This document shows, in pieces, positions 9,829-24,146 of a stretch of DNA of 24,260 nucleotides; position 1 is the first letter of the stretch, and each line of letters opens with the position of its first letter. Source of the DNA: a virus; IMG/VR virus record IMGVR_UViG_3300008952_000293, positions 1 to 24,260 of that record, one strand, 5' to 3'. The translations under genes and the position numbers were made by a program. The notes beneath the pieces were generated by a model. The model was not told the DNA's origin, searched no databases, and was given only the letters and a program-made list of their open reading frames with translations.

Positions 9829-9836
9829 TATAATTA

Positions 9837-10736: not shown

Positions 10737-10770
10737 CAAGTCAGCTTCCTTTCGCTTGACTCGTTTCTTT

Positions 10771-11434: not shown

Positions 11435-11666
11435 AATCCCTTTCCAATATCATTTCTAAATAGTGTATGGCTTTTTCTATATCCTTTCTCTTACCCTTTT
11501 TCTGATGTCTGCATATATACTTAATAGCATTACCCTCAGCAAAGAGTAAGTTATTTTCATTAATAAATTCTGCTGGTTGAATCTTCATATTACTATAATG
11601 ATTTCCATCTACTTGTTTATTTAACGATTCATATGTCATACCTTTAAACATTCCTTTATCTGTCAT
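11427..11666 (-). CDS. DUF3310 family protein
   Basis: A 79-aa protein with the family signature: QVDGNHYSNMKIQPAEFINE (residues 18-37), then LFAEGNAIKYICRHQKKG (41-58), then a final helix (KDIEKAIHYLEMILERDYE). DUF3310 proteins are common in tailed phages. Some are annotated as nucleotide kinases by relation to T7 gp1.7, but there is no Walker A motif here and I would not assign that activity. The length is typical of the stand-alone domain. Its start overlaps the previous stop as TAATG. Confidence 0.85.
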   Translation of the reverse strand: MTDKGMFKGMTYESLNKQVDGNHYSNMKIQPAEFINENNLLFAEGNAIKYICRHQKKGKRKDIEKAIHYLEMILERDYE

Positions 11667-11977
11667 TACAGAACCATTGGTCCTTTCTCCATATATTTTT
11701 GTCTACGTTTATCTTTCTCACTTGGTTCTAAACTTTCATTTAAATCATCTATAGTCCAATGAGGATTCTTTTTTAATTTCTTTACTATCCATTTATAAGA
11801 CCAAGGTTGTAAACGTAATGTAGTACCATGCCAATAATGAGTTTGATTAGGCATTAAAGTTAATACATTCTTAACATTAACTTTCTTTTGCTCTTCAGGA
11901 TTTAATAATCCTTTAAGCCATTCAACCATTATATGTTTAGCTTTATTCCTTATCTTACTCATTTGTTTAGTGTTCAT
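11666..11977 (-). CDS. Hypothetical basic protein, 103 aa, with duplicated N-terminus
   Basis: I chose ATG 11977, with GAGG 3 nt upstream. The first nine residues, MNTKQMSKI, are identical to those of the next upstream gene because of a 27-bp direct repeat. The rest is basic and Trp-rich (HYWHGTTLRLQPWSYKWIVKK), resembling a small winged-helix or nucleic-acid-binding fold, without a definable motif. The ATG at 11962 is an alternative start but has no ribosome binding site. Confidence 0.7.
   Translation of the reverse strand: MNTKQMSKIRNKAKHIMVEWLKGLLNPEEQKKVNVKNVLTLMPNQTHYWHGTTLRLQPWSYKWIVKKLKKNPHWTIDDLNESLEPSEKDKRRQKYMEKGPMVL
11950..11976 (-). repeat. 27-bp direct repeat, copy 1
   Basis: Identical over 27 bp to 12203-12229. 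It encodes residues 2-9 (NTKQMSKI) of the 103-aa protein. Confidence 0.9.
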
Positions 11978-12230
11978 AAACCTCTAATTCACTTATTAAA
12001 AATTTATATATTTTATTACCATGGATAATTTGATAGTCTCTATTTATCAAATTAGGATTTTTTATAATATAAGTATCTGGAAAAATCCTTTCATTGTTTT
12101 TATTTTTATAAGTTATATCAACTTGTAAATCATTTTTTAATCTAAAGTCAGCAATTCCTATACTCTTATCTTTCCAAATCGGTTCTTTTATTTCATATTT
12201 ATTTATCTTACTCATTTGTTTAGTGTTCAA
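11967..12230 (-). CDS. Hypothetical protein, 87 aa, probable TTG start
   Basis: The frame extends back to 12245, but all starts before residue 11 are TTG or GTG. The TTG at 12230 is preceded by GTGGGGA at suitable distance, overlaps the previous stop (TTGA), and gives an N-terminus MNTKQMSKI identical to the next gene's. The remainder (YEIKEPIWKDKSIGIADFRL...VDITYKNKNN...YIIKNPNLINRDYQIIHGNKIYKFLISELEVYE) looks like a small beta-rich domain. No family recognised. Confidence 0.65.
   Translation of the reverse strand: MNTKQMSKINKYEIKEPIWKDKSIGIADFRLKNDLQVDITYKNKNNERIFPDTYIIKNPNLINRDYQIIHGNKIYKFLISELEVYEH
12203..12229 (-). repeat. 27-bp direct repeat, copy 2
   Basis: Identical to 11950-11976, at a distance of 253 bp. 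It encodes residues 2-9 of the neighbouring 87-aa protein. Confidence 0.9.
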
Positions 12231-12412
12231 CTTAATCCCCACCAAATTAAAATGATAGGTATAATAATATGTTCAAAAATTTCATACAAACAAATAAAAA
12301 CTAAAAGCCAAGTAAAAAACACACTCGTTTTAGATTTGCGAGTAAGATATTTAAACATCTTTTCATGCCAAGTTGTGATTTTTTGTGTAAGTTTTAATAG
12401 ATATTTTTTCAT
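12227..12412 (-). CDS. Small membrane protein, 61 aa
   Basis: The basic N-terminal half (MKKYLLKLTQK...KYLTRKSK) is followed by a long hydrophobic stretch (SVFFTWLLVFICLYEIFEHIIIPIILIWWG), enough for one long or two short membrane segments. The start overlaps the SET gene's stop as ATGA. It is presumably an inner-membrane protein with the basic end in the cytoplasm. Function unknown; early phage membrane proteins often affect superinfection or host membrane processes. Confidence 0.7.
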   Translation of the reverse strand: MKKYLLKLTQKITTWHEKMFKYLTRKSKTSVFFTWLLVFICLYEIFEHIIIPIILIWWGLS

Positions 12413-12738
12413 GTTATATTATAAAAAGTATATTTAACAGTTAGTTCATCTCCTCCTGTAATATCTTTTATAGAAACTAAATTATATTTACTATAATTTG
12501 CATCATGTGTTTTTACTTTCTCACAATTAGGGTCATCAGAATGATTTATAAATCCACCTAAAGGTGTACGAATAAGTTCATCTTTAATTTTGTAATGACT
12601 TATACCAAAATTAACACCCTTTGGTACAAACAATTGGGTGAATAATCCTAGACCTTGTATCTTACTCTTATCAATTGTAAGTTTAATACATTCATTATTA
12701 GGTAATGGTTTATATAATTCTTTATTTTTAGTTTCCAT
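12409..12738 (-). CDS. SET-domain protein (putative lysine methyltransferase)
   Basis: A 109-aa protein that fits a minimal SET domain. SKIQGLGLF (residues 25-33) matches the N-terminal GxG SET motif, FINHSDDPNC (63-72) matches NHSxxPN, and DITGGDELTVKYTFY (92-106) matches the GEELxxxY end with its aromatic residue. SET enzymes transfer methyl groups from AdoMet to lysine side chains of proteins. Pre- and post-SET parts are absent. It is the neighbour of an AdoMet decarboxylase-like gene with an 11-nt overlap. The target (host ribosomal protein, histone-like protein or phage protein) is unknown. The family call is strong; activity is inferred. Confidence 0.8.
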   Translation of the reverse strand: METKNKELYKPLPNNECIKLTIDKSKIQGLGLFTQLFVPKGVNFGISHYKIKDELIRTPLGGFINHSDDPNCEKVKTHDANYSKYNLVSIKDITGGDELTVKYTFYNIT

Positions 12739-13120
12739 CTTTATCTAACTTTAATAATTTAAAATTCTTTTCTCTATCAAAATATCTATAACTCATCCTA
12801 ACAGGTTGAAACTTATAAACATAATCAAACACAATCTTTTCATCTAACTCTTTACAACTATACACATCTAACTGTACTAAAGCAGGGTTCAGTTCATCCC
12901 ATGAGTGTAAAGTTATATGTGAGGTTTCTATAATAGTAACACAAGTTAATCCTCTATTACCTTGTACCTCACAATACTTTGCATAAGGTCCACCTAATAC
13001 TTTCATACCAATATCTTTTATTAAAGACCTCATCCACTTCTTAATAGCTTTTAAATCTTTAGGTGGTTCTAAAGTTTCTGCTCTAACTAATAAATGTTTA
13101 TGTTTTAATTCGCTTTCCAT
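12728..13120 (-). CDS. S-adenosylmethionine decarboxylase-like protein (SpeD family)
   Basis: A 130-aa protein with the SpeD core ETSHITLHSWDEL (residues 65-77). The family's pyruvoyl-forming Ser is S67, the proton-donor His is H72, and the processing/catalytic Cys lies in LDVYSC (C89). The C-terminal FQPVRMSYRYFDR also fits. SpeD self-cleaves to make a pyruvoyl group and decarboxylates AdoMet for spermidine synthesis. The residue before the cleaved Ser is normally Glu; here it is Thr (Glu is one place earlier), which may alter processing. SpeD homologs outside the main lineage, including some in phages, have been reported to act on ornithine or arginine, so the substrate is open. Confidence 0.85.
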   Translation of the reverse strand: MESELKHKHLLVRAETLEPPKDLKAIKKWMRSLIKDIGMKVLGGPYAKYCEVQGNRGLTCVTIIETSHITLHSWDELNPALVQLDVYSCKELDEKIVFDYVYKFQPVRMSYRYFDREKNFKLLKLDKDGN

Positions 13121-14027
13121 ATGTTTTTAATTCTTCAGAAAAGTTTTTAGTTATCTCTTCAACATTTGGTTGTCTATTTACTTCAGCTAAATAAACAAAC
13201 TTATTAGAATATTTAAATACTCTTAATCCTTTACCACCATTTGCATCTTTATAACACTCCCATTTATGTGCACAAAACTGACAACCAATAGGTAAAGATT
13301 TATTTCCACCTTTAGTTTCAGATAATTCATAACATCTTTCAGGTGGTGTATTACTCTTTAATGTATCTTGTAATGTTTTAATTAAAGTTGTAACATTAGG
13401 TTTAGCTAACTCATCAGGTTTATAGAAACAAACATCTCCACTTGATTTATCCATAACCAAGAAGCCACCTGCCTTTGTACCCATACCTGTTTCATATCCT
13501 GATAGCTGGGCATGATAACCAAATGGGTCATCATTAACTAACTCACCTGTTTTAAATTTCTTAAAACTAAATGATGATGCAGACTTAACATCACATACTT
13601 CACCATCTACTGTTGCATCTATATGTCCTTTAATATTATCTATCTCTACTTTCTTTTGTTGGTCTCCAATTTTATGTCCAGTTAATTCTGCTAGATATAA
13701 TAATAAATGTTCTAATATATGTCCATATAAAAATTTAATATTTAAACTAGCATCATAGTCTTTAGTTTTCTTTGGACTAAATCTATCATACCATAATTGT
13801 CTAGGTGGTTTACCTAGTACACTCATTCTTAATTTCCCATCCTTTTCTCTGACAGGATTATTCCATGCATTAAAAGCTTCCTTAATATTATTAAGGAATC
13901 TCTCCATGTTTTCCTCTGTTACTTTTGCAGGTTTACCATTAGATATTCCAGCTACTAAATTTTTAATATCAGTAGCTATTGTATCAATGCGTTTCTGCCC
14001 AGTTGTTTCCGATTTTATATTCGCCAT
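13098..14027 (-). CDS. PD-(D/E)XK exonuclease with probable Fe-S cluster
   Basis: A 309-aa protein of the Cas4/RecB-type nuclease fold: GHILEH (102-107, Glu 106), GHIDATVDGE (134-143, Asp 137), then DVKSA (146-150, with Lys 148), then YHAQLSGY (171-178). Together these form the E...D...DxK...YxxQ active site. Cys 232, 249, 252 and 258 (CQFCAHKWEC) are placed to hold a 4Fe-4S cluster. It probably replaces T7 gp6 exonuclease in host DNA breakdown, primer removal or recombination. It overlaps the polymerase gene by 44 nt. AAGGTG lies 8 nt from the ATG. Confidence 0.88.
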   Translation of the reverse strand: MANIKSETTGQKRIDTIATDIKNLVAGISNGKPAKVTEENMERFLNNIKEAFNAWNNPVREKDGKLRMSVLGKPPRQLWYDRFSPKKTKDYDASLNIKFLYGHILEHLLLYLAELTGHKIGDQQKKVEIDNIKGHIDATVDGEVCDVKSASSFSFKKFKTGELVNDDPFGYHAQLSGYETGMGTKAGGFLVMDKSSGDVCFYKPDELAKPNVTTLIKTLQDTLKSNTPPERCYELSETKGGNKSLPIGCQFCAHKWECYKDANGGKGLRVFKYSNKFVYLAEVNRQPNVEEITKNFSEELKTYGKRIKT

Positions 14028-15666
14028 CTAATGGACACCTTATTTTTAAATCCTTTCCAGCTTGGATGATTGACTGTACTGCCAACTCTCCAAACTCTTT
14101 TGTTTTACTTTCTTCAACTTCATATTGAAACTCATCATGTACATTTACTACAGGATAAGCTTTGATTCGTTTCTTTATAACATATTCTTCTAGTAATGTC
14201 AACGCATACTTCATAACACACGCACCAGCACCCTGTAATAGGGTATTTAAAGCCGCATGGGGGTGTCTTATGAGGATTTTTCTTTGGTCAAGTCCTTTGA
14301 GCCATCTTTTTTTAGCCACTCCATCCACTTTTTCTCGTAAGCTTCTAAGACTTGGTGTATGTCTGAGAAATTTTTCTTTAACTCTTCTTCCATCTGCTTC
14401 AGACCTTCCGAGGATACTTCCGATTTTTTTATCCCCTGCTCCATAGATGAATGCGTAAATAAAAGTCTTCGCCTCATCTCTTGACCCCAAACCAGCAGAA
14501 TTTTTATTTGCTGTGTGTATATCTCCATTAATGATTTCATTTGTGTATTCCTTATCGTTCATGTAATGTGCTAACATCCTCAACTCAAGTCCTGAAGCAT
14601 CAACACCTACTAATTTATAGCCCTTCTTTGCCACCCATAATGCCCTACATTCCTTACCATAGGGCGAGTACACAGCAGGAACTTGTGCCATATTGGGCGA
14701 TTGATGGCTCATCCTTCCAGTAACAGTACCATTTGTAATTACTTTGCCATGTACTCTACCATCCTCTCTAGTTGCTTCAATCCAAGAACTGACTTGAGCA
14801 ATTCTTTTCTGAAGCATTAGAAACTCTTTAATTAATTCAGCTTCAGGAATATTTTTAATCTCTGATAAAACTTTTTCATCAACTATTATATGTCCTTTAT
14901 CTGTTTTCTTTTTAGGTTTCCACCCCAACATAATTAATCGTTCTCCAATCTGTTGTCGTGAACCTAAATTAAATTCTTTAAACTTAACTTTAGTAAAAGG
15001 TTTTCCCTTTACATATCCTTTAGCTTTGTTATTAACCTTTGGAATAAATTCTGTTTCAATTTTTAAAGGAGGAAAAGTTTCTCTAACTTTATCTTGAAGA
15101 GTATTCATGTCCTCTTTAAATTTAGCTTGAAGCATATGTGCACCTACTACATCAATCATAAATCCTCGTTCATGTTGTCGTTGTATTATATGTGCAACCT
15201 TATGTTCTAAATCAATTGACTTACCAAAGTCTGTCATCTTTTTAGAAAGGAAGTTGTATAACTTTTCTGTTAAGTCAACATCATTTCTACAATACCTTAA
15301 CATCTCTTCACTAAAATAATCAAACTGGTCAAACTCATATTTCTTTTTATAAAGTTTTTCTCCCCAGTTTCTTAATGAATGACCACCCTCTAACATAGGA
15401 TTAAGTAATCTTGATAAGATTAATGTATCAGTTATCTTACACTTCTTAAATAAATCATAACCAAAAAATCTATTGAGTACTGGTATATCAAACCCTATAA
15501 TATTATGTCCTATTACTTCATCAGTTTGTTTTATAAACTCTTCAAACCTATGTAATTTATCTTGTCTGAATTGATAGTAAGTACCTTTATGTTTACAAAC
15601 AATACACCAAATTTTATCTGCATTAAGAGTTGTTTCAATATCAAATATTACTTTATCAAAAGTCAT
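13984..15666 (-). CDS. polA: Family A DNA polymerase (T7-like)
   Basis: A 560-aa replicative polymerase. The 3'-5' exonuclease domain is complete: FDIETT (8-13, Asp 9 and Glu 11), GHNIIGFD (53-60, Asp 60), YCRND (125-129). Polymerase motif A is VGVDASGLELRML (353-365), motif B is RDEAKTFIYAFIYG (396-409) and motif C is VHDEF (509-513). Tyr 404 occupies the position of E. coli Phe 762 and T7 Tyr 526. It is shorter than T7 gp5 (704 aa), and I see no clear thioredoxin-binding insertion. It overlaps the primase-helicase gene upstream by 11 nt and the exonuclease downstream by 44 nt. Confidence 0.97.
   Translation of the reverse strand: MTFDKVIFDIETTLNADKIWCIVCKHKGTYYQFRQDKLHRFEEFIKQTDEVIGHNIIGFDIPVLNRFFGYDLFKKCKITDTLILSRLLNPMLEGGHSLRNWGEKLYKKKYEFDQFDYFSEEMLRYCRNDVDLTEKLYNFLSKKMTDFGKSIDLEHKVAHIIQRQHERGFMIDVVGAHMLQAKFKEDMNTLQDKVRETFPPLKIETEFIPKVNNKAKGYVKGKPFTKVKFKEFNLGSRQQIGERLIMLGWKPKKKTDKGHIIVDEKVLSEIKNIPEAELIKEFLMLQKRIAQVSSWIEATREDGRVHGKVITNGTVTGRMSHQSPNMAQVPAVYSPYGKECRALWVAKKGYKLVGVDASGLELRMLAHYMNDKEYTNEIINGDIHTANKNSAGLGSRDEAKTFIYAFIYGAGDKKIGSILGRSEADGRRVKEKFLRHTPSLRSLREKVDGVAKKRWLKGLDQRKILIRHPHAALNTLLQGAGACVMKYALTLLEEYVIKKRIKAYPVVNVHDEFQYEVEESKTKEFGELAVQSIIQAGKDLKIRCPLDGEYKIGNNWAETH
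14174..14202 (-). promoter_or_regulatory. Probable sigma70-type promoter inside the polymerase gene
   Basis: On the minus strand TTGACA (14202-14197), 17 bp, TATAAA (14179-14174): 11/12 consensus at optimal spacing. It lies near the 3' end of the polymerase gene and would boost the exonuclease, SpeD-like and SET genes. Confidence 0.5.
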
Positions 15667-17287
15667 TTGCTTTAACTTCAGTTAATCTTCCTGTATCATT
15701 ATCATATTTTAAATCACAACATGGTCCAGTTAATCCTGCAAATCTATTCTTTAATACTCTAACCTTTGTTGTATTTCTAATATCAGGGTCATCATTTTGT
15801 GCATCTCTTTCCAATCCGATAACCATATCACTTAACTGTCCTATACTAGCACTACCTCTTAATTGAGATAGAGAAGTTGCCGCACCCTCTTCATGTCCTT
15901 TACCATCAGGTCGTCTTAAATGTGATACAACTATCATAGCTATACCTGTTTCTTGTACAAGTGTTCTTAATCTAGTCATGATTTCATCCAATGCTCTTCT
16001 CTCATCACCATGACTTTGGTCAGATACAATAATACTAACGTGGTCTATAATAATATATTTACAATCTAAACCTTTAGCTAAATATCTAACTCTTGAAACT
16101 ATATTATCAATAGTGTTAGAACCAAAATGGTCAAACATAAATACTCTACCAGTACCAACAGTTGCATCAAAATAAGTTTTTAATTCTTCTTTAGGTACAT
16201 GAACATCAGGTAAATGTAATCTTTGATTCGCTTCAATACTCATTATACCTTTAGATGTTATAACAGGGGTCTCTTCTAACATTAACAAACCTATATTATC
16301 TTTAGTAGATTTAATTAAATGATGAACCAACTCTCTCATAACTTGGGTCTTACCTAACCCACTACCTGAAGTAAACGTCACTAATTCAGATGGTCTTAAT
16401 CCATATGTTATTTTATTTAATCCTTCAAAAGGATATTGAACAAAGCTTTGAAGTGTTGGTTTACTTATCTCATCAAATAAAATGTTAGCATTTATAATTC
16501 CATCAGGAGCATAGACCTTCGCATTCCAAAATGCTTTTTGATATACTTGTAATTTATTTTTCATCAAGCAATCAGATGCATCTTTAAATTCATTTGGAAG
16601 ATACATTATCTTACATTTCCCAGGGCTAAATAATTCAGCTACCTTTAATGCACCTTCACGACCATGCTCGTCATTGTCAAAGTTTACTATAACATTTTCA
16701 AATTGTTCTAACCAATCTAAACTTCCTTTAATATCTTTAACCGCAGAAGTTATACCATTCTTAATACTAACCACAGGAGTTTCATATCTATCAGTCTTAA
16801 ACATTTGATAAGCTGATAAACAATCTATCTCACCCTCAGTTATTATTACAAATTTATTTTTAGAGAATAAATGTTCTCCAAATAATCCAGAGTTCTTTGT
16901 ATTACCTTGTATAGTAAACTCTTTTAATTTTGTAAATCTAGTTTTAGTTGCAATCTTTGCACCTTGTTTGTCATGGTAAGGATAATAATGATTTGTTATA
17001 TTACCCATACTATCCATCTTAATTGTCACCCCATATCTTCTGCAAGTAGGTTCACTTAAATTTCTATCTACTATCTCTGCATAATCAGATGACTTCATAT
17101 AATCTTTAACTTCGTATTCATGTTTCCCATTACCATTTGTTTGTTTTGTTTCCATATCATATTCCTTCATATATTGTTGACATGAAAAACAAAATGCCGA
17201 ACCATCTGCATTAACAGATACAGCATCAGTACTGTCACATAATGGACAGGGTAGATGATACTTTACAAATCCAGTTTTTGTTTCCAT
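15656..17287 (-). CDS. Primase-helicase (T7 gp4-like)
   Basis: The start is ATG 17287 (AAGGG upstream); the frame also has ATG 17311, but that codon abuts the T-tract of a terminator and has no ribosome binding site. Numbering from 17311: zinc ribbon C22-x2-C25 ... C41-x2-C44; TOPRIM VIITEGEIDCLSAYQ (155-169) with NFDNDEHG (210-217); helicase Walker A TSGSGLGKT (314-322), Walker B YIIIDHV (419-425), His 464 in VVSHLRRP, and LRGSASIGQLSD (484-495). It unwinds DNA and lays primers for the polymerase encoded next. All key residues are present; total 543 aa from the chosen start, close to T7 gp4A (566 aa). Confidence 0.96.
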   Translation of the reverse strand: METKTGFVKYHLPCPLCDSTDAVSVNADGSAFCFSCQQYMKEYDMETKQTNGNGKHEYEVKDYMKSSDYAEIVDRNLSEPTCRRYGVTIKMDSMGNITNHYYPYHDKQGAKIATKTRFTKLKEFTIQGNTKNSGLFGEHLFSKNKFVIITEGEIDCLSAYQMFKTDRYETPVVSIKNGITSAVKDIKGSLDWLEQFENVIVNFDNDEHGREGALKVAELFSPGKCKIMYLPNEFKDASDCLMKNKLQVYQKAFWNAKVYAPDGIINANILFDEISKPTLQSFVQYPFEGLNKITYGLRPSELVTFTSGSGLGKTQVMRELVHHLIKSTKDNIGLLMLEETPVITSKGIMSIEANQRLHLPDVHVPKEELKTYFDATVGTGRVFMFDHFGSNTIDNIVSRVRYLAKGLDCKYIIIDHVSIIVSDQSHGDERRALDEIMTRLRTLVQETGIAMIVVSHLRRPDGKGHEEGAATSLSQLRGSASIGQLSDMVIGLERDAQNDDPDIRNTTKVRVLKNRFAGLTGPCCDLKYDNDTGRLTEVKANDF

Positions 17288-17311
17288 TGTCGCCCTTTTA
17301 AATTCGTTCAT

Positions 17312-17351
17312 AAAAAAAAGGAGAGCCGACCCTATTACAAGCCGACTCTCC
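17312..17351 (-). terminator. Intrinsic terminator before the primase-helicase gene
   Basis: On the minus strand GGAGAGTCGGC pairs with GTCGGCTCTCC (11 bp including U-G pairs; 17351-17320), followed directly by eight T (17319-17312). It is a textbook Rho-independent terminator placed upstream of, not after, the gene. Confidence 0.85.
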
Positions 17352-17379
17352 AGTAGGAGTAGAAAATGTAGTCACGCAT
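17335..17379 (-). other. Possible leader peptide, 14 codons, aromatic-rich
   Basis: The frame MRDYIFYSYWRVGL, ending in TAA, lies inside the predicted leader RNA, and its end runs into the terminator stem-loop. It has 3 Tyr, 1 Phe and 1 Trp among 14 residues, as in amino-acid-sensing attenuators. No ribosome binding site is visible, so it may be fortuitous. Confidence 0.25.
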
Positions 17380-17400
17380 TATGACTAAATAACCAAGAGG

Positions 17401-17429
17401 TTTATACTAAAAATCTTCCTTGATGTCAA
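17401..17429 (-). promoter_or_regulatory. sigma70-type promoter before primase-helicase
   Basis: TTGACA (17429-17424), exactly 17 bp, TATAAA (17406-17401) on the minus strand, overlapping the end of the SSB gene. This is 11/12 consensus, placed for transcription of the leader and the replication genes. Confidence 0.7.
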
Positions 17430-17856
17430 CACCATTAGAAGATTTTTCTACATTAAATCCTTCTTTAGGTGTGTATTCCACTAAGTCCAGTACCTGAACA
17501 GCTTGTAAATCTAAACCTTTGCCCTTCTTTCCTTTGAAATTCCAGTCATAAGATTTATACATTACCTTTACCTTACTGCCATTACCGATTATTTTTTCAA
17601 TAGGTTTCTTTTCAGCATCCACTAATTGTGGTTGTTGGTTCTTATCACCATTTGCTTTTGAAACCTTTCTCTTAAACCTGATGATATTCTTTACTACTTT
17701 ATCATCAGCTTTTGTTTCACCAATATTAAATCCTTGAGATTTAAAATCCTGTGCTGTTGCATCATCAACTGCTAAATCAATTCTCCACATAGGTTCAAAC
17801 TTTTCGTTTGGTCGTGTCAGAGAAGCCCAGTAAGCTGTGCCTTCAATTATTGCCAT
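17407..17856 (-). CDS. Single-stranded DNA-binding protein (T7 gp2.5-like)
   Basis: A 149-aa protein with a predicted OB-fold: GTAYWASLTRPNEKFEPMWRIDLAVDD (6-32), then a basic IIRFKRKVSKANG stretch (58-70), then IGNGSKVKVMYKSYDWNFKGKKGKGLDLQAVQVLDLVEY (89-127). The acidic tail ending in DIKEDF has a C-terminal Phe, as in gp2.5 and bacterial SSB, where the tail recruits polymerase and primase-helicase. The ribosome binding site AAAGGAAAA is good. It sits just upstream of the replication genes. Assigned from pattern and context. Confidence 0.85.
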   Translation of the reverse strand: MAIIEGTAYWASLTRPNEKFEPMWRIDLAVDDATAQDFKSQGFNIGETKADDKVVKNIIRFKRKVSKANGDKNQQPQLVDAEKKPIEKIIGNGSKVKVMYKSYDWNFKGKKGKGLDLQAVQVLDLVEYTPKEGFNVEKSSNGVDIKEDF

Positions 17857-17883
17857 ATGTATTTTCCTTTTGTTGTTGTTAAT

Positions 17884-18216
17884 TTACTTTTCATAAAACT
17901 CTTTTAGCATATCAGCACCCCCCTTGTCAACACTTGAAGCATCTTTTTTTTCCTCATTTTCGCTAGTGTTTTCAAGGATTTCTGTTATCTTTTCATCTAT
18001 CACTCTTTTAATCTTCTGTTTCTTTTTTAATTTTGTTTCTAACTCTGCAATTCTTTTACCTAATACCTGAACATCTTGTGTTGCTTGTTCAACTTGAATA
18101 AGTAATTGTTTTATTTTAGAATCTTTTTGAGAAACTAATTTAATAGCATCATCTTTTTCTTTAGTTAAATCTGATATAGTATTTTTATATTCTCTAATTA
18201 AATCTCGTTCACTCAT
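17884..18216 (-). CDS. Coiled-coil protein, 110 aa
   Basis: Almost entirely helical and charged, with heptad-like leucine/isoleucine spacing across residues 10-80 (TKEKDDAIKLVSQKDSKIKQ and VLGKRIAELETKLKKK). The C-terminal tail is acidic and Gly-containing (TSENEEKKDASSVDKGG). No enzymatic motif, signal or membrane segment. It lies between the SSB and a lipoprotein gene. Likely an oligomerisation or scaffold-type accessory protein; function unknown. Confidence 0.75.
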   Translation of the reverse strand: MSERDLIREYKNTISDLTKEKDDAIKLVSQKDSKIKQLLIQVEQATQDVQVLGKRIAELETKLKKKQKIKRVIDEKITEILENTSENEEKKDASSVDKGGADMLKEFYEK

Positions 18217-18219
18217 ATA

Positions 18220-18699
18220 TTATTTTCTTTTTTTTCTTTTAAGTTTTTTCTTTTTAATTTTTTTCTTTTTAATTTTCTTTGGTTTCCTACAACAATGTAT
18301 AACTAGGTATATTAAACTAAATGCTAACAGAACAATAGATACAGCTAGGAAAAAAGAGAGATAACAAATAGTAAATACATCTATTGTAAATACAACTCTT
18401 TCATTTTTAGTACTGGCTAACTTAATACTTTCATCTACTTTAAATGTTTTTCTTTCTACTGATGGTGCAACTATATCAACAAAAGTTTTCTTAACTTCTT
18501 TTGCTTTAACTATGTACTCATATGCATGAGTTTTAATATCTTTTTTAGTTGTAAGTGTTGTTGCTAAATCTATACCACTATATGCTTTAGCATAAGCATT
18601 ATTACTTAAAGCTAGACTAGACCCACTTGATACAATCGCTATATTACTACATCCAGTTAGTAATAATAAACCAACTATCAATCCTATTATTTTTTTCAT
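18220..18699 (-). CDS. Lipoprotein with C-terminal TM and polybasic cytoplasmic tail
   Basis: A 159-aa protein. The lipoprotein signal MKKIIGLIVGLLLLTGC has a canonical lipobox (L-T-G-C, Cys 17). Residues 18-105 are a periplasmic domain. Residues 106-133 form a membrane segment (CYLSFFLAVSIVLLAFSLIYLVIHCC), and the final 24 residues are nearly all Lys/Arg with a few Ile, Leu and Pro. The positive-inside rule puts the tail in the cytoplasm. It is therefore tethered twice to the inner membrane. The start overlaps the previous stop as ATGA; GAGAGGA is 8 nt upstream. A superinfection-exclusion or host-takeover role is plausible but inferred. Confidence 0.8.
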   Translation of the reverse strand: MKKIIGLIVGLLLLTGCSNIAIVSSGSSLALSNNAYAKAYSGIDLATTLTTKKDIKTHAYEYIVKAKEVKKTFVDIVAPSVERKTFKVDESIKLASTKNERVVFTIDVFTICYLSFFLAVSIVLLAFSLIYLVIHCCRKPKKIKKKKIKKKKLKRKKRK

Positions 18700-18893
18700 G
18701 TAAACAATCCTCTCTTTAATTGAGATGCACTTACAAATGTTTGCTTATCATTATCATTTAATTTACTATGACAATTACTACATATCTTTTTATTTCTATC
18801 ATGTACGTTTCGGAGCATAGTACCACCCAAAGCAGTACCATCACAGGCATGACACCTGTCTTTAAAGTTATCTCCTCCATCCATCATACCCAT
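18696..18893 (-). CDS. Zinc-ribbon protein, 65 aa (HNH-like?)
   Basis: Two metal-binding knuckles: RCHACDG (C14, C17) and ICSNCHSKL (C38, C41, H42), spaced by 20 residues. This gives a small zinc ribbon. The second knuckle CxxCH with upstream His residues recalls HNH-endonuclease zinc sites, but the protein is too short for a full HNH enzyme and the His-Asn-His set is not complete. Likely a nucleic-acid- or protein-binding zinc finger, possibly a transcription regulator. Confidence 0.75.
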   Translation of the reverse strand: MGMMDGGDNFKDRCHACDGTALGGTMLRNVHDRNKKICSNCHSKLNDNDKQTFVSASQLKRGLFT

Positions 18894-18894
18894 A

Positions 18895-18978
18895 TTACTT
18901 ACCTATAAAACTTAACAGAACCATAGTGACAATAAATAAAAGGATATAAAATAAAATTAAATATATTTTTTCTTTCAT
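18895..18978 (-). CDS. 27-aa single-TM micro-protein
   Basis: ATG at 18978, one nucleotide after the stop of the nuclease gene; TAA at 18897-18895, just before the next start. The sequence is MKEKIYLILFYILLFIVTMV followed by LLSFIGK: a charged N-terminus, a 20-residue membrane span and a Lys end. There is no clear ribosome binding site, but it fills an otherwise empty gap exactly. It could be a membrane-targeting micro-protein. Confidence 0.45.
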   Translation of the reverse strand: MKEKIYLILFYILLFIVTMVLLSFIGK

Positions 18979-18979
18979 A

Positions 18980-19375
18980 TCAATCAAACAATGCATAACA
19001 ACTCTCACTAAAGATTTCTTTAATAGGTATTACTACACATTTAGATGCCCTGTAATCTCCTATCTCTTTAGTGTGTGTCTTTTTATATTTATCTACTATC
19101 TTTTTTAATCTATTAACTCTGAACACTATCATATTATATTCTTTGTTCTTTAATTCAAGGATATGAAACCACCATTTAGCTTCTGTCTTTGCTATACCAC
19201 TTGGCTTACCTCTAAACTCATACTCAATAGCAATATTCCCTGACTTTCTCCACCAGCTACGTTCAGTTTTAACTTCTACATTACCACCTTTAAGTAATTC
19301 ATCAACTCTTTTCTCTCTCACTTGACCATACTTTAAATCAATATCAAATGCAGAAGTCTTATTCAAATTTCCCAT
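18980..19375 (-). CDS. Probable PD-(D/E)XK-type nuclease (resolvase-like), 131 aa
   Basis: FDIDLKYGQVREKRVDELL (residues 10-28) leads into VEVKTERSWW (33-42), a candidate E-x-K active site. IAIEYEFRGKPSGIAKTEAKWW (48-69) follows, with the Glu/Thr and Trp-Trp pattern of small phage Holliday-junction-resolvase or restriction-like nucleases. The length suits a dimeric resolvase (T7 gp3 is 149 aa). It probably resolves branched replication intermediates or degrades host DNA. It is placed upstream of the replication genes. The call rests on motif pattern only. Confidence 0.7.
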   Translation of the reverse strand: MGNLNKTSAFDIDLKYGQVREKRVDELLKGGNVEVKTERSWWRKSGNIAIEYEFRGKPSGIAKTEAKWWFHILELKNKEYNMIVFRVNRLKKIVDKYKKTHTKEIGDYRASKCVVIPIKEIFSESCYALFD

Positions 19376-19377
19376 CC

Positions 19378-19728
19378 TTAATGAAAGCTACATAGGTAAT
19401 GCGTTAGAAATTTATTTAAGTTCTTATGCTCAAATAATTTTTTCGCATTTGCTATTTTTAATTTGTGGAAAGTTTTTGTAATAAAGGAAGGGTCAAAGTC
19501 GGAATATTCACAGACCTCACAGAATGCTTCATCATTTGGATTGAACCAAGCATTAGCATTCTTAACAATCTGTAATCTATGTTTACCCCATGCATGAATA
19601 TCTACATCAAGGGCATCCATGATGGCTCGGACAATAACACTCCTCCATAGTAATATGTGTGGAGTTATCTTCTTGCCTTCGCCTTTCCCCTCATTCCAAA
19701 GGGGTATTGTATTTCCATTACGTATCAT
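19378..19728 (-). CDS. Conserved phage-type hypothetical protein, 116 aa
   Basis: A mostly helical protein. LLWRSVIVRAIMDALDVDI (26-44), then ANAWFNPNDEAFCEVCEYSDFDPSFI (58-83) match a pattern (LWRaVi.qAi.D ... A..W....d..F..ic..a..dp..v) that I recall from phage proteins of unknown function, often near replication genes. It may be a small DNA-binding or adaptor protein. The C-terminal basic helix (KLKIANAKKLFEHKNLNKFL) is consistent with nucleic-acid contact. No ribosome binding site is obvious. Confidence 0.7.
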   Translation of the reverse strand: MIRNGNTIPLWNEGKGEGKKITPHILLWRSVIVRAIMDALDVDIHAWGKHRLQIVKNANAWFNPNDEAFCEVCEYSDFDPSFITKTFHKLKIANAKKLFEHKNLNKFLTHYLCSFH

Positions 19729-19772
19729 ATTTCATTTTATTGTCTAGATACTTTGCAATCAGTTTTGGCTTT

Positions 19773-20036
19773 TTACTTTTTACAATCTTTGAGTGAAACT
19801 GTTTTCTCATTAACATCTGTGCTATTGGATTTCTTGACTTTATTTTTGTATGTTTCTTCATCAATTTCCTCCACAGTATTACGTTTAAACTTCACTTCTT
19901 TACCAACGATTTTTGAATAAGGCGACCAATGTAATTCTCTAGTTGCTTGTTCTAAAGTAGTACCTGAATTGTAATAATCTTCAATACACATATCTACATT
20001 TACCCAAGATTTTTTCATAAAGAATTTATTCGCCAT
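19773..20036 (-). CDS. Hypothetical protein, 87 aa, first gene after the strong promoter
   Basis: I chose ATG 20036 (MANKFFMKKSWVNVDMC); an upstream ATG at 20048 is possible. The N-terminal half contains CIEDYYNSGTTLEQATRELHWSPYSKIVG (residues 17-45), which looks like a helical HTH-like module. The C-terminal half is charged and probably extended. It is the first gene downstream of the promoter at 20133-20105, about 60 nt from the predicted transcript start. Possible DNA-binding protein; not assigned to a family. Confidence 0.65.
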   Translation of the reverse strand: MANKFFMKKSWVNVDMCIEDYYNSGTTLEQATRELHWSPYSKIVGKEVKFKRNTVEEIDEETYKNKVKKSNSTDVNEKTVSLKDCKK

Positions 20037-20078
20037 AGTACTATCCAATAAAATATTATTTAATAAAAGAAATACTAA

Positions 20079-20115
20079 CCCTATTAAGTAGGGCAGTATC
20101 TCCTATTATAGAGGG
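20079..20115 (-). promoter_or_regulatory. Pair of operator-like elements at the middle promoter
   Basis: CCCTATTAAGTAGGG (20079-20093, 5-bp perfect arms) and TCCTATTATAGAGGG (20101-20115) match at 11 of 15 positions. Their centres are 22 bp apart, two helical turns. One covers the -10 box, the other lies just after the predicted start point. This is a typical geometry for cooperative repressor binding. Confidence 0.5.
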
Positions 20116-20133
20116 CAATACCACCTGTGCCAA
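20105..20133 (-). promoter_or_regulatory. Strong sigma70-type promoter for the replication operon
   Basis: On the minus strand TTGGCA (20133-20128), 17 bp, TATAAT (20110-20105): 11/12 consensus, in the only sizeable gap (20049-20193) of the operon. The predicted start is near 20098. Confidence 0.8.
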
Positions 20134-20193
20134 CACCCCTAAAAAATAAATTTTATTCAATAAAATCAATGGTTTAGACAATATATTCTCCTT

Positions 20194-20406
20194 CTAGTTG
20201 TATTTAATAATTTGAATTGCTCGTGCATAATTAGGTATCCTTTTTATGTACCCTTTCCATTCAATATACCCAAGCATATTCCATATAACACTCTTTGATT
20301 TGACATTCATATGTTGCATCATCTCATTAAATGTTGGCATCACTTCATTATCTTTAAAGTAATGCTGTAAAAATTTAAATAACTTTAATTGTTTTTTAGT
20401 TAGCAT
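20194..20406 (-). CDS. LexA-type DNA-binding domain protein (peptidase-less), 70 aa
   Basis: It matches the N-terminal winged-helix domain of LexA: LTKKQLKLFKFLQHYFKDN (2-20), MPTFNEMMQHMNVKSKSVIWNML (23-45; recognition-helix region with KSKS), then EWKGYIKRIPNYARAIQI (49-66), equivalent to LExKGxIxRxPxxARAI. The autoproteolytic Ser/Lys peptidase domain is missing, so it should not respond to RecA. It lies directly upstream of a promoter with paired operator-like sites, making it the likely regulator of that promoter. It overlaps the upstream gene by 11 nt. Confidence 0.85.
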   Translation of the reverse strand: MLTKKQLKLFKFLQHYFKDNEVMPTFNEMMQHMNVKSKSVIWNMLGYIEWKGYIKRIPNYARAIQIIKYN

Positions 20407-20656
20407 CTCTTAATCTCTTCTGTGCTTCATCAACTATATCAAACAAGTCAGTTAATTTTTTTTCTTTCCTAACTTTACTAATCATCTCTCTTAATCTACT
20501 ATGATAATCAGTAGGATGATAAGCTGTGCCATTAACCCTTAACTCTCGTTCATATTTAACATCAGCTTTTAAATTTTTAATCTCCTCTTTTAGAGTAGCA
20601 ATTTCTTTTTTATATGCATTCTCTTTAAGAGAAGTTAAATAAATATCATCACCCAT
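20396..20656 (-). CDS. Coiled-coil protein, 86 aa
   Basis: I chose ATG 20656, because GAGGAG lies 4 nt upstream; the longer frame from 20716 overlaps the previous gene. The helical and charged first half (NAYKKEIATLKEEIKNLKAD, residues 13-32) reads as a coiled coil. The second half has YHPTDYHSRLREMISKVRK and a helical, acidic end. No catalytic motif. Unknown early protein. Confidence 0.7.
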   Translation of the reverse strand: MGDDIYLTSLKENAYKKEIATLKEEIKNLKADVKYERELRVNGTAYHPTDYHSRLREMISKVRKEKKLTDLFDIVDEAQKRLRDAN

Positions 20657-20867
20657 TTTTCTCCTCACCATTCCCATAGTGTTTGCTTTGCTCAAACAAA
20701 TAGTATTGATGTCCATCTTTCTCTTCTTGTTTCTGCATTAACTTTGCATACGCATCAGCATCTTCAACTGTTTTAAATGCTCTGTCTTGATAAAAAGTTT
20801 CACTAAACTTACCTTTAGACATTACTATATATCTTTTCAACTCTGCTTCTTTAACTTTTCCAAACAT
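20649..20867 (-). CDS. Hypothetical small early protein, 72 aa
   Basis: AGGAG lies 6 nt upstream of the ATG. KRYIVMSKGKFSETFYQDRAFKTVEDADAYAKLMQKQEE has the strand-turn-strand-helix look of small domains in which a strand pair is followed by 'F.t.edA..yA' (as in DpnD/PcfM-like and similar proteins). It ends in a charged Gly-containing tail. Function unknown. It overlaps the next gene by 8 nt. Confidence 0.7.
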   Translation of the reverse strand: MFGKVKEAELKRYIVMSKGKFSETFYQDRAFKTVEDADAYAKLMQKQEEKDGHQYYLFEQSKHYGNGEEKNG

Positions 20868-20879
20868 TTATTTCTCCTA

Positions 20880-21110
20880 TTAATATTCTTGTTTAACATC
20901 AAACGCAACTGAAACTTTATCATAAGGTTCTTGTTCTAATGAAAATTTAATTGCGGTATATAATTCACCTAACTCAAAAATATTATTCTCAAATAAAGTT
21001 TTTTTTGTTATCTTCGGTGTCTTATACTTTATATGTTTTCTTTTATCTTCATCCCAATAATCTTTATCAATTTTTGTTGAGATTATTTTTACATTATCAT
21101 ATGTAATCAT
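20880..21110 (-). CDS. Hypothetical small early protein, 76 aa
   Basis: ATG 21110 with AAGGAG about 8 nt upstream, inside the end of the previous small gene. It is basic at first (IISTKIDKDYWDEDKRKHIKYK) and ends with a helix and strand (ELGELYTAIKFSLEQEPYDKVSVAFDV). No signal, membrane segment or motif recognised. Confidence 0.65.
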   Translation of the reverse strand: MITYDNVKIISTKIDKDYWDEDKRKHIKYKTPKITKKTLFENNIFELGELYTAIKFSLEQEPYDKVSVAFDVKQEY

Positions 21111-21112
21111 TT

Positions 21113-21253
21113 TTATTTCTCCTTATTTTTTTTGTTATGTCTACCCATGTACCATGCAGATGGTTCGTAATCCCATCTATGTCCTTTGTGTCCTCTTATT
21201 TTAGCATACCACATACGCAACCTAACTATTAATTTTTTAAATCTTAATGACAT
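21113..21253 (-). CDS. Basic micro-protein, 46 aa
   Basis: ATG 21253 to TAA 21115-21113, filling the gap between two accepted genes, with its stop 2 nt before the next start. It is very basic with Trp/His/Tyr (LRFKKLIVRLRMWYAKIRG and HKGHRWDYEPSAWYMGRHNK). It may bind nucleic acid. The ribosome binding site is weak (AAGAA). The composition and exact fit support a real gene. Confidence 0.5.
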   Translation of the reverse strand: MSLRFKKLIVRLRMWYAKIRGHKGHRWDYEPSAWYMGRHNKKNKEK

Positions 21254-21276
21254 ATGTTCTTATAGCACATTAAAAT

Positions 21277-21579
21277 CTAATGCACAACCCTTTCTTTTAA
21301 TATTTTATTATCAATTAAAAAATGTGCTTGTCTGCCCATCCATCCATGTAATTTCCAAACAATCCCTGTATCTATTAGAAATTGCCACGCATCTAACTCT
21401 TCAGCAATAGTATTACATGGAATGAAACCCTCTGCTCTACCAACTGCTTGGTGTATATCATCAACCAAATCTGCTGGTATATTTATCATCTTATATCTTT
21501 TATAATAATCTAATTCTTCAGGTAAATTAAACTGCTTCTTACCATAGATAGCTTTCTTTATTTTAATTTTCTTACTCAT
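21277..21579 (-). CDS. Conserved phage-type hypothetical protein, 100 aa
   Basis: The C-terminal half ELDAWQFLIDTGIVWKLHGWMGRQAHFLID (residues 61-90) matches a pattern 'W..LvdtGi.w.LqGwfGR.a..Li' that I recall from many small phage proteins of unknown function. The N-terminus is strongly basic (KKIKIKKAIYGKKQF). The helical central part (DLVDDIHQAVGRAEG) precedes it. It overlaps the LAGLIDADG-like gene by 8 nt. Confidence 0.75.
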   Translation of the reverse strand: MSKKIKIKKAIYGKKQFNLPEELDYYKRYKMINIPADLVDDIHQAVGRAEGFIPCNTIAEELDAWQFLIDTGIVWKLHGWMGRQAHFLIDNKILKERVVH

Positions 21580-21895
21580 AATATTTAACTATCTCCTTTG
21601 CTACTTTTATTCTCTTCTTTGTTAAGAGATAAGGTAGTATAGTTTTACATACTTTGTAAGCTGTTTCATTTAAAGCTACCCATATCTCTTGAGGTTTAGC
21701 TTTCTTACCTGTCGCTGTTATTCTAGGTTTAGACTTATAAATTCTACCTCCAAAAAGTTTATGTAATAATCTTATTGGTGCAAAGTCTGTGCCTGTCACC
21801 TCTATTCTTTTTCTTTTATACTTTACATTCTCAAATTGTAAATATCCTTCACCATCTATGTAAGCACTCGCCCATCTCTTGTCATCAAGTTTCAT
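21572..21895 (-). CDS. LAGLIDADG-type homing endonuclease-like protein, 107 aa
   Basis: The motif WASAYIDGEGYLQF (residues 8-21) corresponds to LAGLIDADGxF, with the metal-binding acidic positions D14/E16. It is followed by strands (KRIEVTGTD), a helix with LLHKLFGGRIY (43-53), and IWVALNETAYKVCKTILPYLLTKKRIKVAKEIVKYY (71-106), typical of the second half of the domain. A single motif in 107 residues implies a homodimer. It is free-standing, not inside an intron or intein that I can see. It cuts long asymmetric DNA sites in known relatives; here it may spread itself or exclude related phages. Confidence 0.75.
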   Translation of the reverse strand: MKLDDKRWASAYIDGEGYLQFENVKYKRKRIEVTGTDFAPIRLLHKLFGGRIYKSKPRITATGKKAKPQEIWVALNETAYKVCKTILPYLLTKKRIKVAKEIVKYYE

Positions 21896-22074
21896 TTAAT
21901 TAACTCCATATCTTTTTTATTAATATCAAAACAAGTACTCTCTCCATCATTACCCTCTATCCATTCATCTCTATTAACATCCATAGCTTTGTCATGAGCA
22001 TCTTGTTTGTTGTTTGCCTTTAGTTCTATGTAGTATCCTTGAGTTTCATATCCCCACACTCTATACTTTTTCAT
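21892..22074 (-). CDS. Small DpnD/PcfM-like protein, 60 aa (copy 2)
   Basis: I chose ATG 22074 (GGAGAG 4 nt upstream) over ATG 22098. MKKYRVWGYETQGYYIELKA (1-20), then NNKQDAHDKAMDVNRDEWIE: strand-strand-helix with the pattern Y.V......Y.IE..A....DA..KA. The next upstream gene has the same plan. Similar small domains are called DpnD/PcfM-like; their role is unknown. The stop overlaps the LAGLIDADG-like start by 4 nt (ATGA). Confidence 0.65.
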   Translation of the reverse strand: MKKYRVWGYETQGYYIELKANNKQDAHDKAMDVNRDEWIEGNDGESTCFDINKKDMELIK

Positions 22075-22294
22075 TCTGCTCTCTCCATTTCTTAACACCC
22101 TCTGTTGGTGTATCTCCTTCTTTAGTTATCTCTGTATCAACTAATTTATATTCTTCTTCTGCTTCTCTCCATTCCTGATTAACATAATCTCTCTCATTAT
22201 GTTTTTCCCATGCATCATCTTCATCTTTAGCATCAATAAAGTTCTCTACTATTTTCCACCCTGTTAGGTGTTCTGTTATTTTATATCTTGGCAT
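22061..22294 (-). CDS. Small DpnD/PcfM-like protein, 77 aa (copy 1)
   Basis: A perfect ribosome binding site (AAGGAGG, 7 nt upstream). MPRYKITEHLTGWKIVENFI followed by DAKDEDDAWEKHNERD mirrors the strand-strand-helix layout of the next gene, suggesting tandem paralogs. The C-terminal half is highly acidic (REAEEEYKLVDTEITKEGD). Function unknown. Confidence 0.7.
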   Translation of the reverse strand: MPRYKITEHLTGWKIVENFIDAKDEDDAWEKHNERDYVNQEWREAEEEYKLVDTEITKEGDTPTEGVKKWREQNEKV

Positions 22295-22445
22295 TATTAA
22301 CCTCCTTAATTTTCTTATTAATGTACCATTCGTGCCTCGCCTGTTTAACTTCAGGTCTTGCGTTATACTCTTTAAAGTATTTCCTTTTCTTTTCTATCAC
22401 ATCAGGTCTTTGATGGTAGAGTTTATTATATTCTTTTCTGTTCAT
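22281..22445 (-). CDS. 54-aa protein with two RP(D/E)V repeats
   Basis: ATG 22445 shares one base with the previous stop (TGATG). The sequence has two similar units: YHQRPDVIEKKRKYFKEY, then YNARPEVKQARHEWY. It is Arg/Lys/Tyr-rich. Repeats of 'Y..RPEVk.k.r.y' occur in phage and HNH-associated proteins that I recall, probably as DNA-contacting helices. It ends inside the next gene's start (14-nt overlap). Function unknown. Confidence 0.65.
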   Translation of the reverse strand: MNRKEYNKLYHQRPDVIEKKRKYFKEYNARPEVKQARHEWYINKKIKEVNNAKI

Positions 22446-22816
22446 CAATCTACAATAGGGTCATGAGTTAGCTTACTCATCTGTTCTAACCTAGTCTTTG
22501 GCTCATCATTATCTTCTTCTTCTGTTTCACTTGGCTCATAATGTTTCCAATATAAATGTTGATTGTGTTCATCAACATCATTCACTAATGTTTCTTTTAA
22601 CTCTTTATATTTTTCTACATCATAACCAATTTGATTTATCTTGGTATCAAACTCTTTACCTATCATCCACCCACTCGCCATCAAATCACCATGCTCACCT
22701 GCTTGTGTTATATCACCATCCATATAAGCATTCCAACATTCATTCATAATTCTAACCACATTAAAAGGTACATCACCTAACTCTTCAAAGGTGTATTGTA
22801 AATTTTTAAAGTCCAT
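22445..22816 (-). CDS. Hypothetical acidic early protein, 123 aa
   Basis: A strong ribosome binding site (AAGGAG, 4 nt upstream). Residues 1-60 are helical with several Met/Trp (VVRIMNECWNAYMDGDITQA). The C-terminal third is very acidic (YEPSETEEEDNDEPKTRLEQ). No signal, membrane segment or motif recognised. The acidic tail is compatible with a DNA-mimic or protein-binding inhibitor, but that is speculation. Confidence 0.7.
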   Translation of the reverse strand: MDFKNLQYTFEELGDVPFNVVRIMNECWNAYMDGDITQAGEHGDLMASGWMIGKEFDTKINQIGYDVEKYKELKETLVNDVDEHNQHLYWKHYEPSETEEEDNDEPKTRLEQMSKLTHDPIVD

Positions 22817-22958
22817 GATACTCCTTAAATAATTTTCTAAAAAAGATTTTCAATTCTTTAAACTCTTCGTTAGGTGTTAACTCTGCCCAATTCCAATCAA
22901 CTTTAGAATTTATATCTAATGCTTTTATTATCTCATATTCTAATTGTTTAGAGTTCAT
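22806..22958 (-). CDS. Small helical protein, 50 aa
   Basis: ATG 22958 lies in the last codons of the preceding gene (11-nt overlap) with GAGG about 9 nt upstream. The stop overlaps the next start region by 11 nt. The sequence MNSKQLEYEIIKALDINSKV followed by DWNWAELTPNEEFKELKIFF is helical and amphipathic. It is too short for family assignment. The overlaps at both ends make it a convincing gene. Confidence 0.6.
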   Translation of the reverse strand: MNSKQLEYEIIKALDINSKVDWNWAELTPNEEFKELKIFFRKLFKEYHGL

Positions 22959-23133
22959 ATCTATTACCTCTATCTCTTACTCTGCATCTTGTATAAAGAA
23001 AGCCCTTTTCTTTTGGTATCAAGTCTTGTTTTTTCATAGATTGTATCTTATCAATCGCATCTTGACACAATAAAGCTGGTACATTTATCTTCATAGTTCT
23101 TGTTATGTATATATATTCTTTATTCTTATTCAT
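22948..23133 (-). CDS. Small early protein, 61 aa
   Basis: I chose ATG 23133: GAGAGGAG lies 7 nt upstream, whereas the frame before it lies within the previous gene. MNKNKEYIYITRTMKINVPA, then LLCQDAIDKIQSMKKQ, then a basic end with RCRVRDRGNR. Strand-helix composition. No motif. Confidence 0.65.
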   Translation of the reverse strand: MNKNKEYIYITRTMKINVPALLCQDAIDKIQSMKKQDLIPKEKGFLYTRCRVRDRGNRYEL

Positions 23134-23907: not shown

Positions 23908-23929
23908 ATACTCCTTTTGTTTTTTTATA

Positions 23930-23985: not shown

Positions 23986-24146
23986 GTCCTAACAGAAAAT
24001 TTTGTATTAACATATGCGACATACTGACGCATCTTCTATAATATTTATCATGTTCTATTATAATCATAAAAATTTTTCTATATTAATTATATATAAATCA
24101 TTAGGGCTAATAATCATATCACCATTACAATTTCTAATTATATATA

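What the first reader, a model, noticed from the sequence alone, without database searches (positions are those of the whole stretch)
17312..17429. Promoter, ~83-nt structured leader and intrinsic terminator before the primase-helicase gene
On the minus strand TTGACA-17-TATAAA (17429-17401) is followed by a leader with a TAGTCA/TGACTA hairpin, then an 11-bp GC-rich terminator stem and T8 that abuts the primase-helicase frame. A terminator in front of a gene cluster, with its own promoter, means either a discrete small RNA of about 83 nt or conditional read-through (attenuation) controlling replication genes. A CTCC/GGAG pairing just upstream competes with the terminator's 5' arm, as antiterminators do. 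I know of no such element described for T7-like phages.
Basis: partly seen in the sequence, partly recalled or inferred. Interest (0 to 1): 0.78.

Follow-up and report, generated by a model that had tools for sequence, protein, structure and literature searches.

The report
Pelagiphage promoter–RNA–terminator before replication genes
In a group of viruses that infect the ocean's most abundant bacteria, a promoter hidden in the tail of one gene appears to make a short, two-hairpin RNA that should stop just before the DNA-replication genes, so those genes probably depend on read-through; the arrangement is conserved in most of the relatives examined, but nobody has yet looked for the RNA in infected cells as far as we could find.

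Summary
The window is a pelagiphage of the HTVC103P type. Between its ssDNA-binding protein (SSB) and primase-helicase genes lie TTGACA-17-TATAAA (17429-17401, overlapping the SSB tail codons), a 7-bp hairpin, a linker with CUACUCC, and a 13-bp terminator stem with U8 (predicted RNA about 83 nt). Of 97 distinct gap sequences (the window's included), 78 have exact TTGACA and a T tract, 13 neither, 4 only the T tract, 2 only TTGACA. The stem covaries (9 of 11 pairs with double changes). Codons under the -35 box are nearly fixed (GTT 74 of 74; GAC 72 of 75). By a strict scan it is the only intrinsic terminator in the window and in complete HTVC104P. HTVC103P and 104P lack a T7-type RNA polymerase. 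The primase ribosome-site motif starts 10-29 nt after the T tract in 69 of 82, so replication genes need read-through or an unrecognised promoter. Best reading: a conditional or leaky terminator with its own promoter. The CTCC/GGAG antiterminator is not conserved (32 of 97). A trans-acting RNA is possible, but no target was found and Hfq was not detected in 99 host-family genomes. No transcript data exist here.

The parts
17401..17429 (-). sigma-70 type promoter TTGACA-17-TATAAA; -35 box lies in SSB codons Val-Asp, -10 directly after the SSB stop
17369..17387 (-). hairpin 1 of the leader (7 bp, loop 5)
17352..17368 (-). single-stranded linker with CTACTCC (17362-17356); CTCC kept in 95 of 97 distinct sequences
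17312..17351 (-). intrinsic terminator: 13-bp stem, 6-nt loop, T8
17312..17394 (-). predicted terminated RNA, about 83 nt (start inferred from the -10 box)
17407..17856 (-). gp2.5-like ssDNA-binding protein gene; its last codons carry the -35 box
15656..17311 (-). DNA primase/helicase gene, next gene downstream; conserved start probably at 17287

Best explanation
A conditional (or deliberately leaky) terminator with its own promoter. Host RNA polymerase starts at the promoter in the SSB tail, makes a two-hairpin leader of about 70-90 nt and mostly stops at the U tract; the same terminator would also stop transcripts arriving from SSB. Only polymerases that read through express primase-helicase, DNA polymerase and the genes behind them. 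This keeps SSB high relative to the replication enzymes and/or delays them until a phage or host factor lowers termination. Shown: conservation of promoter, structure and U tract in most relatives; absence of a T7-type RNA polymerase in the nearest complete genomes; too little room for a promoter between terminator and primase in most relatives. Inferred: that transcription starts and stops there, how efficiently, that it is regulated, and by what.
For: Covarying stem (9 of 11 pairs with double changes; 95.2% of cells paired against 40-57% when slid). -35 codons nearly fixed: GTT 74 of 74 (elsewhere 422 of 1077), GAC 72 of 75 (elsewhere 296 of 1119). The hexamer 17 nt on begins TA in 80 of 80 TTGACA-bearing sequences, with at least 4 of 6 matches in 78 of 80. 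Only terminator above a strict threshold in complete HTVC104P and in the window. No PF00940 RNA polymerase in HTVC103P, 104P, 115P or the window, found in controls HTVC019P and 119P. Primase ribosome-site motif 10-29 nt after the T tract in 69 of 82. Two distinct sequences (L051, L128) keep TTGACA without a T tract, as expected if the promoter also serves the downstream genes.
Against: No transcript data; no regulator identified. The -10 box ends in T in only 46 of 80 TTGACA-bearing sequences, and not in the window, so promoter strength is unsure. No conserved antiterminator fold and no conserved leader peptide. A promoter inside the replication genes is not excluded; a TTGACA-17-TATAAA match lies in the polymerase gene at 14202. 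Hairpin 2 persists in 15 of 15 sequences without T5, so it has some use other than termination (three of them, L053, L071, L076, keep a short or broken T run). The T tract remains in 4 sequences without exact TTGACA. The losses fall mostly in one clade (5 changes of promoter and 4 of T tract on the tree, outgroup HTVC115P counted), so joint loss is not statistically shown. By entropy the -35 Asp column is not exceptional (0.43 against a mean of 0.57 for 71 two-fold columns); it is the preference for GAC that is unusual.
Confidence: 0.5

Rival explanations
1. A discrete small RNA acting in trans. The terminated RNA pairs through its exposed UCUACUCC linker with ribosome-binding sites of phage or host messages; read-through to primase is secondary.
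For: Own promoter, own terminator, compact two-hairpin fold. CTCC kept in 95 of 97, and a CAT 6-9 nt before it in 90 of those 95: the reverse complement of a GGAG-spacer-ATG start site. The HTVC104P linker is on average more complementary to 88 phage start sites than shuffled linkers (1 of 150 shuffles as good).
Against: No single target: the best phage start site is no better than with shuffles (65 of 150 as good). In the scan of whole HTVC104P the best site after the element itself (-22.8 kcal/mol, 35869, minus strand) lies inside a gene, not at a start; that scan had no shuffle control. Six host genomes hold 20 near-matches to the complement against 35 for the reversed control. 16S rRNA: no better than shuffles overall, though 1 of 30 variants (L152) beat all its 20 shuffles. 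Hfq in 0 of 99 host-family genomes, so a canonical Hfq-type sRNA is unlikely. Thirteen distinct sequences lack both TTGACA and T tract.
Confidence: 0.22
2. A Q/AlpA-type antitermination control point: a phage protein loads on RNA polymerase at this promoter and makes it ignore the terminator, switching on the replication genes.
For: Same layout as promoters served by Q and AlpA: sigma-70 promoter with an intrinsic terminator shortly downstream (passages of PMC9371919); phages without a T7-type RNA polymerase; the only strictly scored terminator to overcome.
Against: No Q-like protein identified (not systematically searched); no -10-like pause element recognised by eye; the promoter spacer codons show no conservation clearly beyond their coding duty.
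Confidence: 0.13
3. A plain SSB 3'-end or processing element: the hairpin stabilises the SSB message or trims the SSB:primase ratio; the promoter adds little.
For: Hairpin 2 persists without a T5 tract in 15 of 15 such sequences, 13 of them also without TTGACA; SSB is needed in large amounts (general knowledge).
Against: Does not explain the nearly fixed -35 codons, the -10 box directly after the stop codon or the kept hairpin 1 and linker.
Confidence: 0.13
4. Chance resemblance with no function.
For: In the loose scan of 8000-24260, terminator-like and promoter-like sites are no more frequent than in shuffles, and this promoter is not listed.
Against: Conservation and covariation in relatives and fold z-score -4.7.
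Confidence: 0.02

Closest known systems
IsrK RNA of Salmonella prophage Gifsy-1 (PMC4825925: start of abstract and passages)
   Same: One promoter, a short RNA ending at a Rho-independent terminator, and read-through making a longer phage message.
   Different: No sequence comparison was made; prophage of an enteric bacterium; the read-through message there is not reported in the passages as primase/polymerase; there the short RNA acts in trans, here that is unknown.
Lambda late promoter with terminator and Q protein; AlpA of Pseudomonas (PMC9371919: abstract and passages)
   Same: Sigma-70 promoter followed closely by an intrinsic terminator that gates downstream genes.
   Different: Those gate late or lysis genes and need Q/AlpA, a binding element and a pause element, none identified here; here the gated genes would be replication genes.
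P4 CI RNA (described in a passage of PMC4825925; further details recalled)
   Same: A short phage RNA and premature termination controlling replication genes.
   Different: CI RNA is processed from a leader and pairs with sites up- and downstream; here a dedicated promoter and intrinsic terminator, and no complementary site stood out in the window (no control).
StxS sRNA (PMC12197685: passages; its late-promoter origin is recalled)
   Same: Short phage RNA (74 nt in that review's table); by recall it arises by termination downstream of a phage promoter.
   Different: Trans targets known there, none here; Hfq not detected in this host family.
Lambda oop RNA (recalled only)
   Same: About 77-nt terminated RNA beside replication genes.
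   Different: oop is antisense; this RNA runs in the sense direction of the operon.

Membership tests
Intrinsic (Rho-independent) terminator | G+C-rich stem directly followed by a U tract, conserved | tested here: met
   13-bp stem and T8; stem covaries; T5 or more in 82 of 97 distinct sequences
Intrinsic (Rho-independent) terminator | Transcripts end there | not testable with these tools
   needs transcript end mapping or in vitro transcription
Sigma-70 promoter of host RNA polymerase | -35 and -10 hexamers at 16-18 nt, conserved | tested here: met
   weak point: last base of the -10 box is T in 46 of 80 and A in the window
Ribosome-mediated attenuator (trp type) | Conserved leader peptide with regulatory codons | tested here: not met
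   The window has an ORF MRDYIFYSYWRVGL, but of 25 sequences printed 6 have no ATG ORF there and the others differ; no frame through the linker is open in all (61, 49 and 39 of 95)
Antiterminator-type attenuator or riboswitch | Conserved mutually exclusive antiterminator pairing | tested here: not met
   CTCC/GGAG hairpin with loop of 3 or more in 32 of 97; other alternative folds were not searched
Known Rfam family | Score above gathering threshold | tested here: not met
   0 matches at gathering in the window; sub-threshold matches far below cut-off, e.g. PyrR 27 of 54 bits, suhB/mmgR 16.1 of 41
Q/AlpA-type antitermination site | Promoter closely followed by terminator | tested here: met
Q/AlpA-type antitermination site | Binding element, -10-like pause element and a Q-like protein | tested here: inconclusive
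   None recognised by eye; no systematic search
Hfq-dependent trans-acting sRNA | Host has Hfq | tested here: not met
   0 of 99 Pelagibacteraceae genomes, while 5 of 14 control genomes ring; genome completeness not stated, and the window's own host is not known
Hfq-dependent trans-acting sRNA | A conserved target | tested here: inconclusive
IsrK-like dual short RNA / read-through message | Short terminated RNA and read-through message both exist and act | not testable with these tools
   no RNA data

The most novel reading that the evidence does not exclude
The terminated leader is an Hfq-independent phage regulator whose exposed CAU-(6-9 nt)-CUCC stretch is antisense to the Shine-Dalgarno plus start codon of messages, so that one switch couples replication-gene read-through (less short RNA) to release of translation of other phage or host genes.
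Probability: 0.1. Interest if true: 0.78.

Novelty: new variant of a known kind. Interest (0 to 1): 0.52.

Why it matters
Pelagiphages without their own RNA polymerase must time their genes with the streamlined SAR11 transcription machinery. A paper on a different polymerase-less pelagiphage reported sigma-70 promoters but could find no terminators (PMC10504331, passages). A conserved promoter-leader-terminator in front of the replication operon is a concrete, testable control point, in a host family where the usual sRNA chaperone was not detected in 99 sampled genomes.

Tried and rejected
CTCC/GGAG antiterminator: not conserved. Leader-peptide attenuation: the window has a short ORF rich in Tyr/Trp, not conserved. 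Antisense to SAR11 16S rRNA: prompted by a resemblance between the linker and a recalled SAR11 probe site; energies match shuffles overall, 1 of 30 variants (L152) beating all 20 of its shuffles. Phage target sites: pattern counts near chance, no start site better than shuffles, whole-genome scan without control. Host target sites: 20 near-matches in 6 genomes against 35 for the reversed control. Copies in host genomes: 0 of 147 (stricter filters and no positive genome inside that call; the same model rang in 13 of 17 phage records). Second copy within a phage: one match in each of those 13, none in the other 4. Independent co-loss of promoter and T tract: only 4 independent pairs, not testable. 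A TATAAT inside hairpin 1 of the clade without TTGACA has no convincing -35 box by eye. Papers: searched the open-licence library; none of the titles or abstract starts listed describes this element (one search listed 15 of 543 papers, 12 of 27). I read only passages, no whole paper.

The first RNA-polymerase search had no ringing control and was repeated with HTVC019P and HTVC119P. A regular expression for the primase start failed and was replaced.

Full report
What the window is. The window is a 24,260-base virus record. Its nearest named relatives in the phage collection are Pelagibacter phages HTVC104P and HTVC103P, with about 80% DNA identity over 84% of a 3-kb query and 82% primase identity. 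Minus-strand genes include a gp2.5-like SSB, a primase/helicase, a DNA polymerase, a Cas4-type exonuclease and an S-adenosylmethionine decarboxylase. No T7-type RNA polymerase domain (PF00940) is found in the complete records of HTVC104P, 103P and 115P or in the window, a fragment, while the same search finds it in HTVC019P and HTVC119P. So although the replication genes are T7-like, transcription most likely rests on host RNA polymerase, and sigma-70 promoters and intrinsic terminators are the relevant signals. Exact TTGACA-17 with a -10 of at least 5 of 6 occurs 3 times in the window (shuffle mean 0.37) and 5 times in HTVC104P (0.6; 30 shuffles each).

The element. The 83-nt RNA folds at z -4.7. 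The stock promoter scan did not list this promoter because it requires T at the end of the -10 box.

Relatives. Scans with the primase and with three SSB proteins found 358, 212, 211 and 220 relatives, of which each call kept the best 80. With the window's own locus and named phages, 315 loci were examined; 307 have both genes close together, giving 98 distinct gap sequences, many loci being the same contig fetched by different queries. HTVC115P (L004) lacks the element (a 16-nt gap) and is left out below; tallies it under 'T tract only' because of an unrelated T run. Of the other 97, the window's own among them, 78 have exact TTGACA and T5 or more, 13 neither, 4 only the T tract, 2 only TTGACA. 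Of 80 with TTGACA, the hexamer 17 nt on begins with TA in 80 and matches TATAAT in at least 4 of 6 places in 78, but its last base is T in only 46. The predicted RNA is 71-87 nt in the 78 (start assumed 13 nt after the SSB stop).

Selection on the promoter. The -35 box lies in SSB codons. Among 87 distinct SSB coding sequences from the first set of loci, Val at that place is GTT in 74 of 74 (422 of 1077 elsewhere) and Asp is GAC in 72 of 75 counted from the stop codon, 72 of 79 by alignment column (296 of 1119 elsewhere). The sequences are related, so these are not independent counts. By entropy the Asp column is ordinary (0.43; mean 0.57 over 71 two-fold columns); what is unusual is that it favours GAC so strongly, while other Asp columns vary more or favour GAT.

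Structure. On 30 representative sequences the terminator stem has 95.2% of cells paired and double changes at 9 of 11 pairs (0 of 500 shuffles reach the covariation score; the number of pair types is not unusual, 81 of 500); sliding the partner gives 40-57% paired. On 22 sequences of the AGTCAT type, 98.0% of cells over both helices are paired; hairpin 1 has a double change at only 1 of 7 pairs, and the number of pair types is no higher than in shuffles (491 of 500). Across clades hairpin 1 changes sequence widely; its region folds better than shuffles with mean z -2.7 in 29 representatives, 28 of them below -1, though many are not significant singly. RNAalifold on the full alignment returned only the terminator stem, as hairpin 1 does not align across clades.

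Where it is and is not. A covariance model finds it once in each of 13 of 17 records searched, including complete HTVC103P and 104P; none in HTVC115P, 019P, 119P or G157, whose relative lacks the T tract. It rings in 0 of 147 host-family genomes. No Rfam family reaches its threshold (weak matches). By my strict scan (8 or more pairs with at most one mismatch, T6, -9 kcal/mol or lower) it is the only terminator in the window and in all 54 kb of HTVC104P.

Consequence. In 82 sequences with a T tract, the primase ribosome-site motif starts 10-29 nt after it in 69; in the other 13 it starts 102-129 nt after it, and behind the T tract lies a small ORF, of 30-38 residues with a hydrophobic stretch in 9 and of 12 residues from the first ATG in 4. 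There is thus little or no room for a promoter after the terminator in most, and primase and polymerase need read-through or a promoter not recognised here. The two sequences with TTGACA but no T tract fit a promoter that also serves the downstream genes. Hairpin 2 is kept in 15 of 15 sequences without T5 (L053, L071 and L076 keep a short or broken T run), so the hairpin has a further use. On the tree of 96 rows promoter and T tract change 5 and 4 times, outgroup counted, and the sequences with neither fall in one clade of 16, so I draw no statistical conclusion from joint loss.

Small-RNA reading. The linker keeps CTCC in 95 of 97 and a CAT 6-9 nt before it in 90 of those 95: antisense to a Shine-Dalgarno plus start codon. 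In the clade without T tract this CAT lies in the stem of hairpin 1, so structure alone could explain it there. The HTVC104P linker fits the average of 88 phage start sites better than 149 of 150 shuffles, but its best single site is ordinary. Hfq was found in 0 of 99 host-family genomes. I keep this as the main rival.

Verdict. A real and conserved promoter-leader-terminator cassette of HTVC103P-type pelagiphages, not described in any title or abstract start listed by my searches of the open-licence library. It works most likely as a conditional or leaky terminator before the replication genes. In kind it resembles IsrK, Q-served late promoters and P4 CI control, without having met, or having been testable for, their further defining features.

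Noticed in passing
17287-17311 (-); L002, L003, L056, L070, L385: Relatives carry a small ORF of 30-38 residues with one hydrophobic stretch (MNEFK... type) right after the T tract; the first codons of the window's primase ORF (MNEFKRAT) look like its remnant, so the true primase start is probably 17287.
   Followed up: partly
7296-7324 (+): 12 of 12 sigma-70 promoter before the gene at 7389-7808, with a similar one before the Hsp20 gene of HTVC104P.
   Followed up: no
L131, L133, L135, L138, L145, L152: Relatives without TTGACA and T tract keep the second hairpin, with CCTCC in its loop and compensatory stem changes.
   Followed up: partly
20133-20078 (-): TTGGCA-17-TATAAT followed at once by a 6-bp hairpin in a gap between listed ORFs.
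   Followed up: no
Pelagibacteraceae genomes (99 sampled): No Hfq match in any of 99 genomes although 5 of 14 control genomes, including Caulobacter, ring.
   Followed up: partly
L002, MN698243.1 9830-10279: HTVC104P and HTVC103P annotate a lysine-acyltransferase-like gene two genes before SSB.
   Followed up: no
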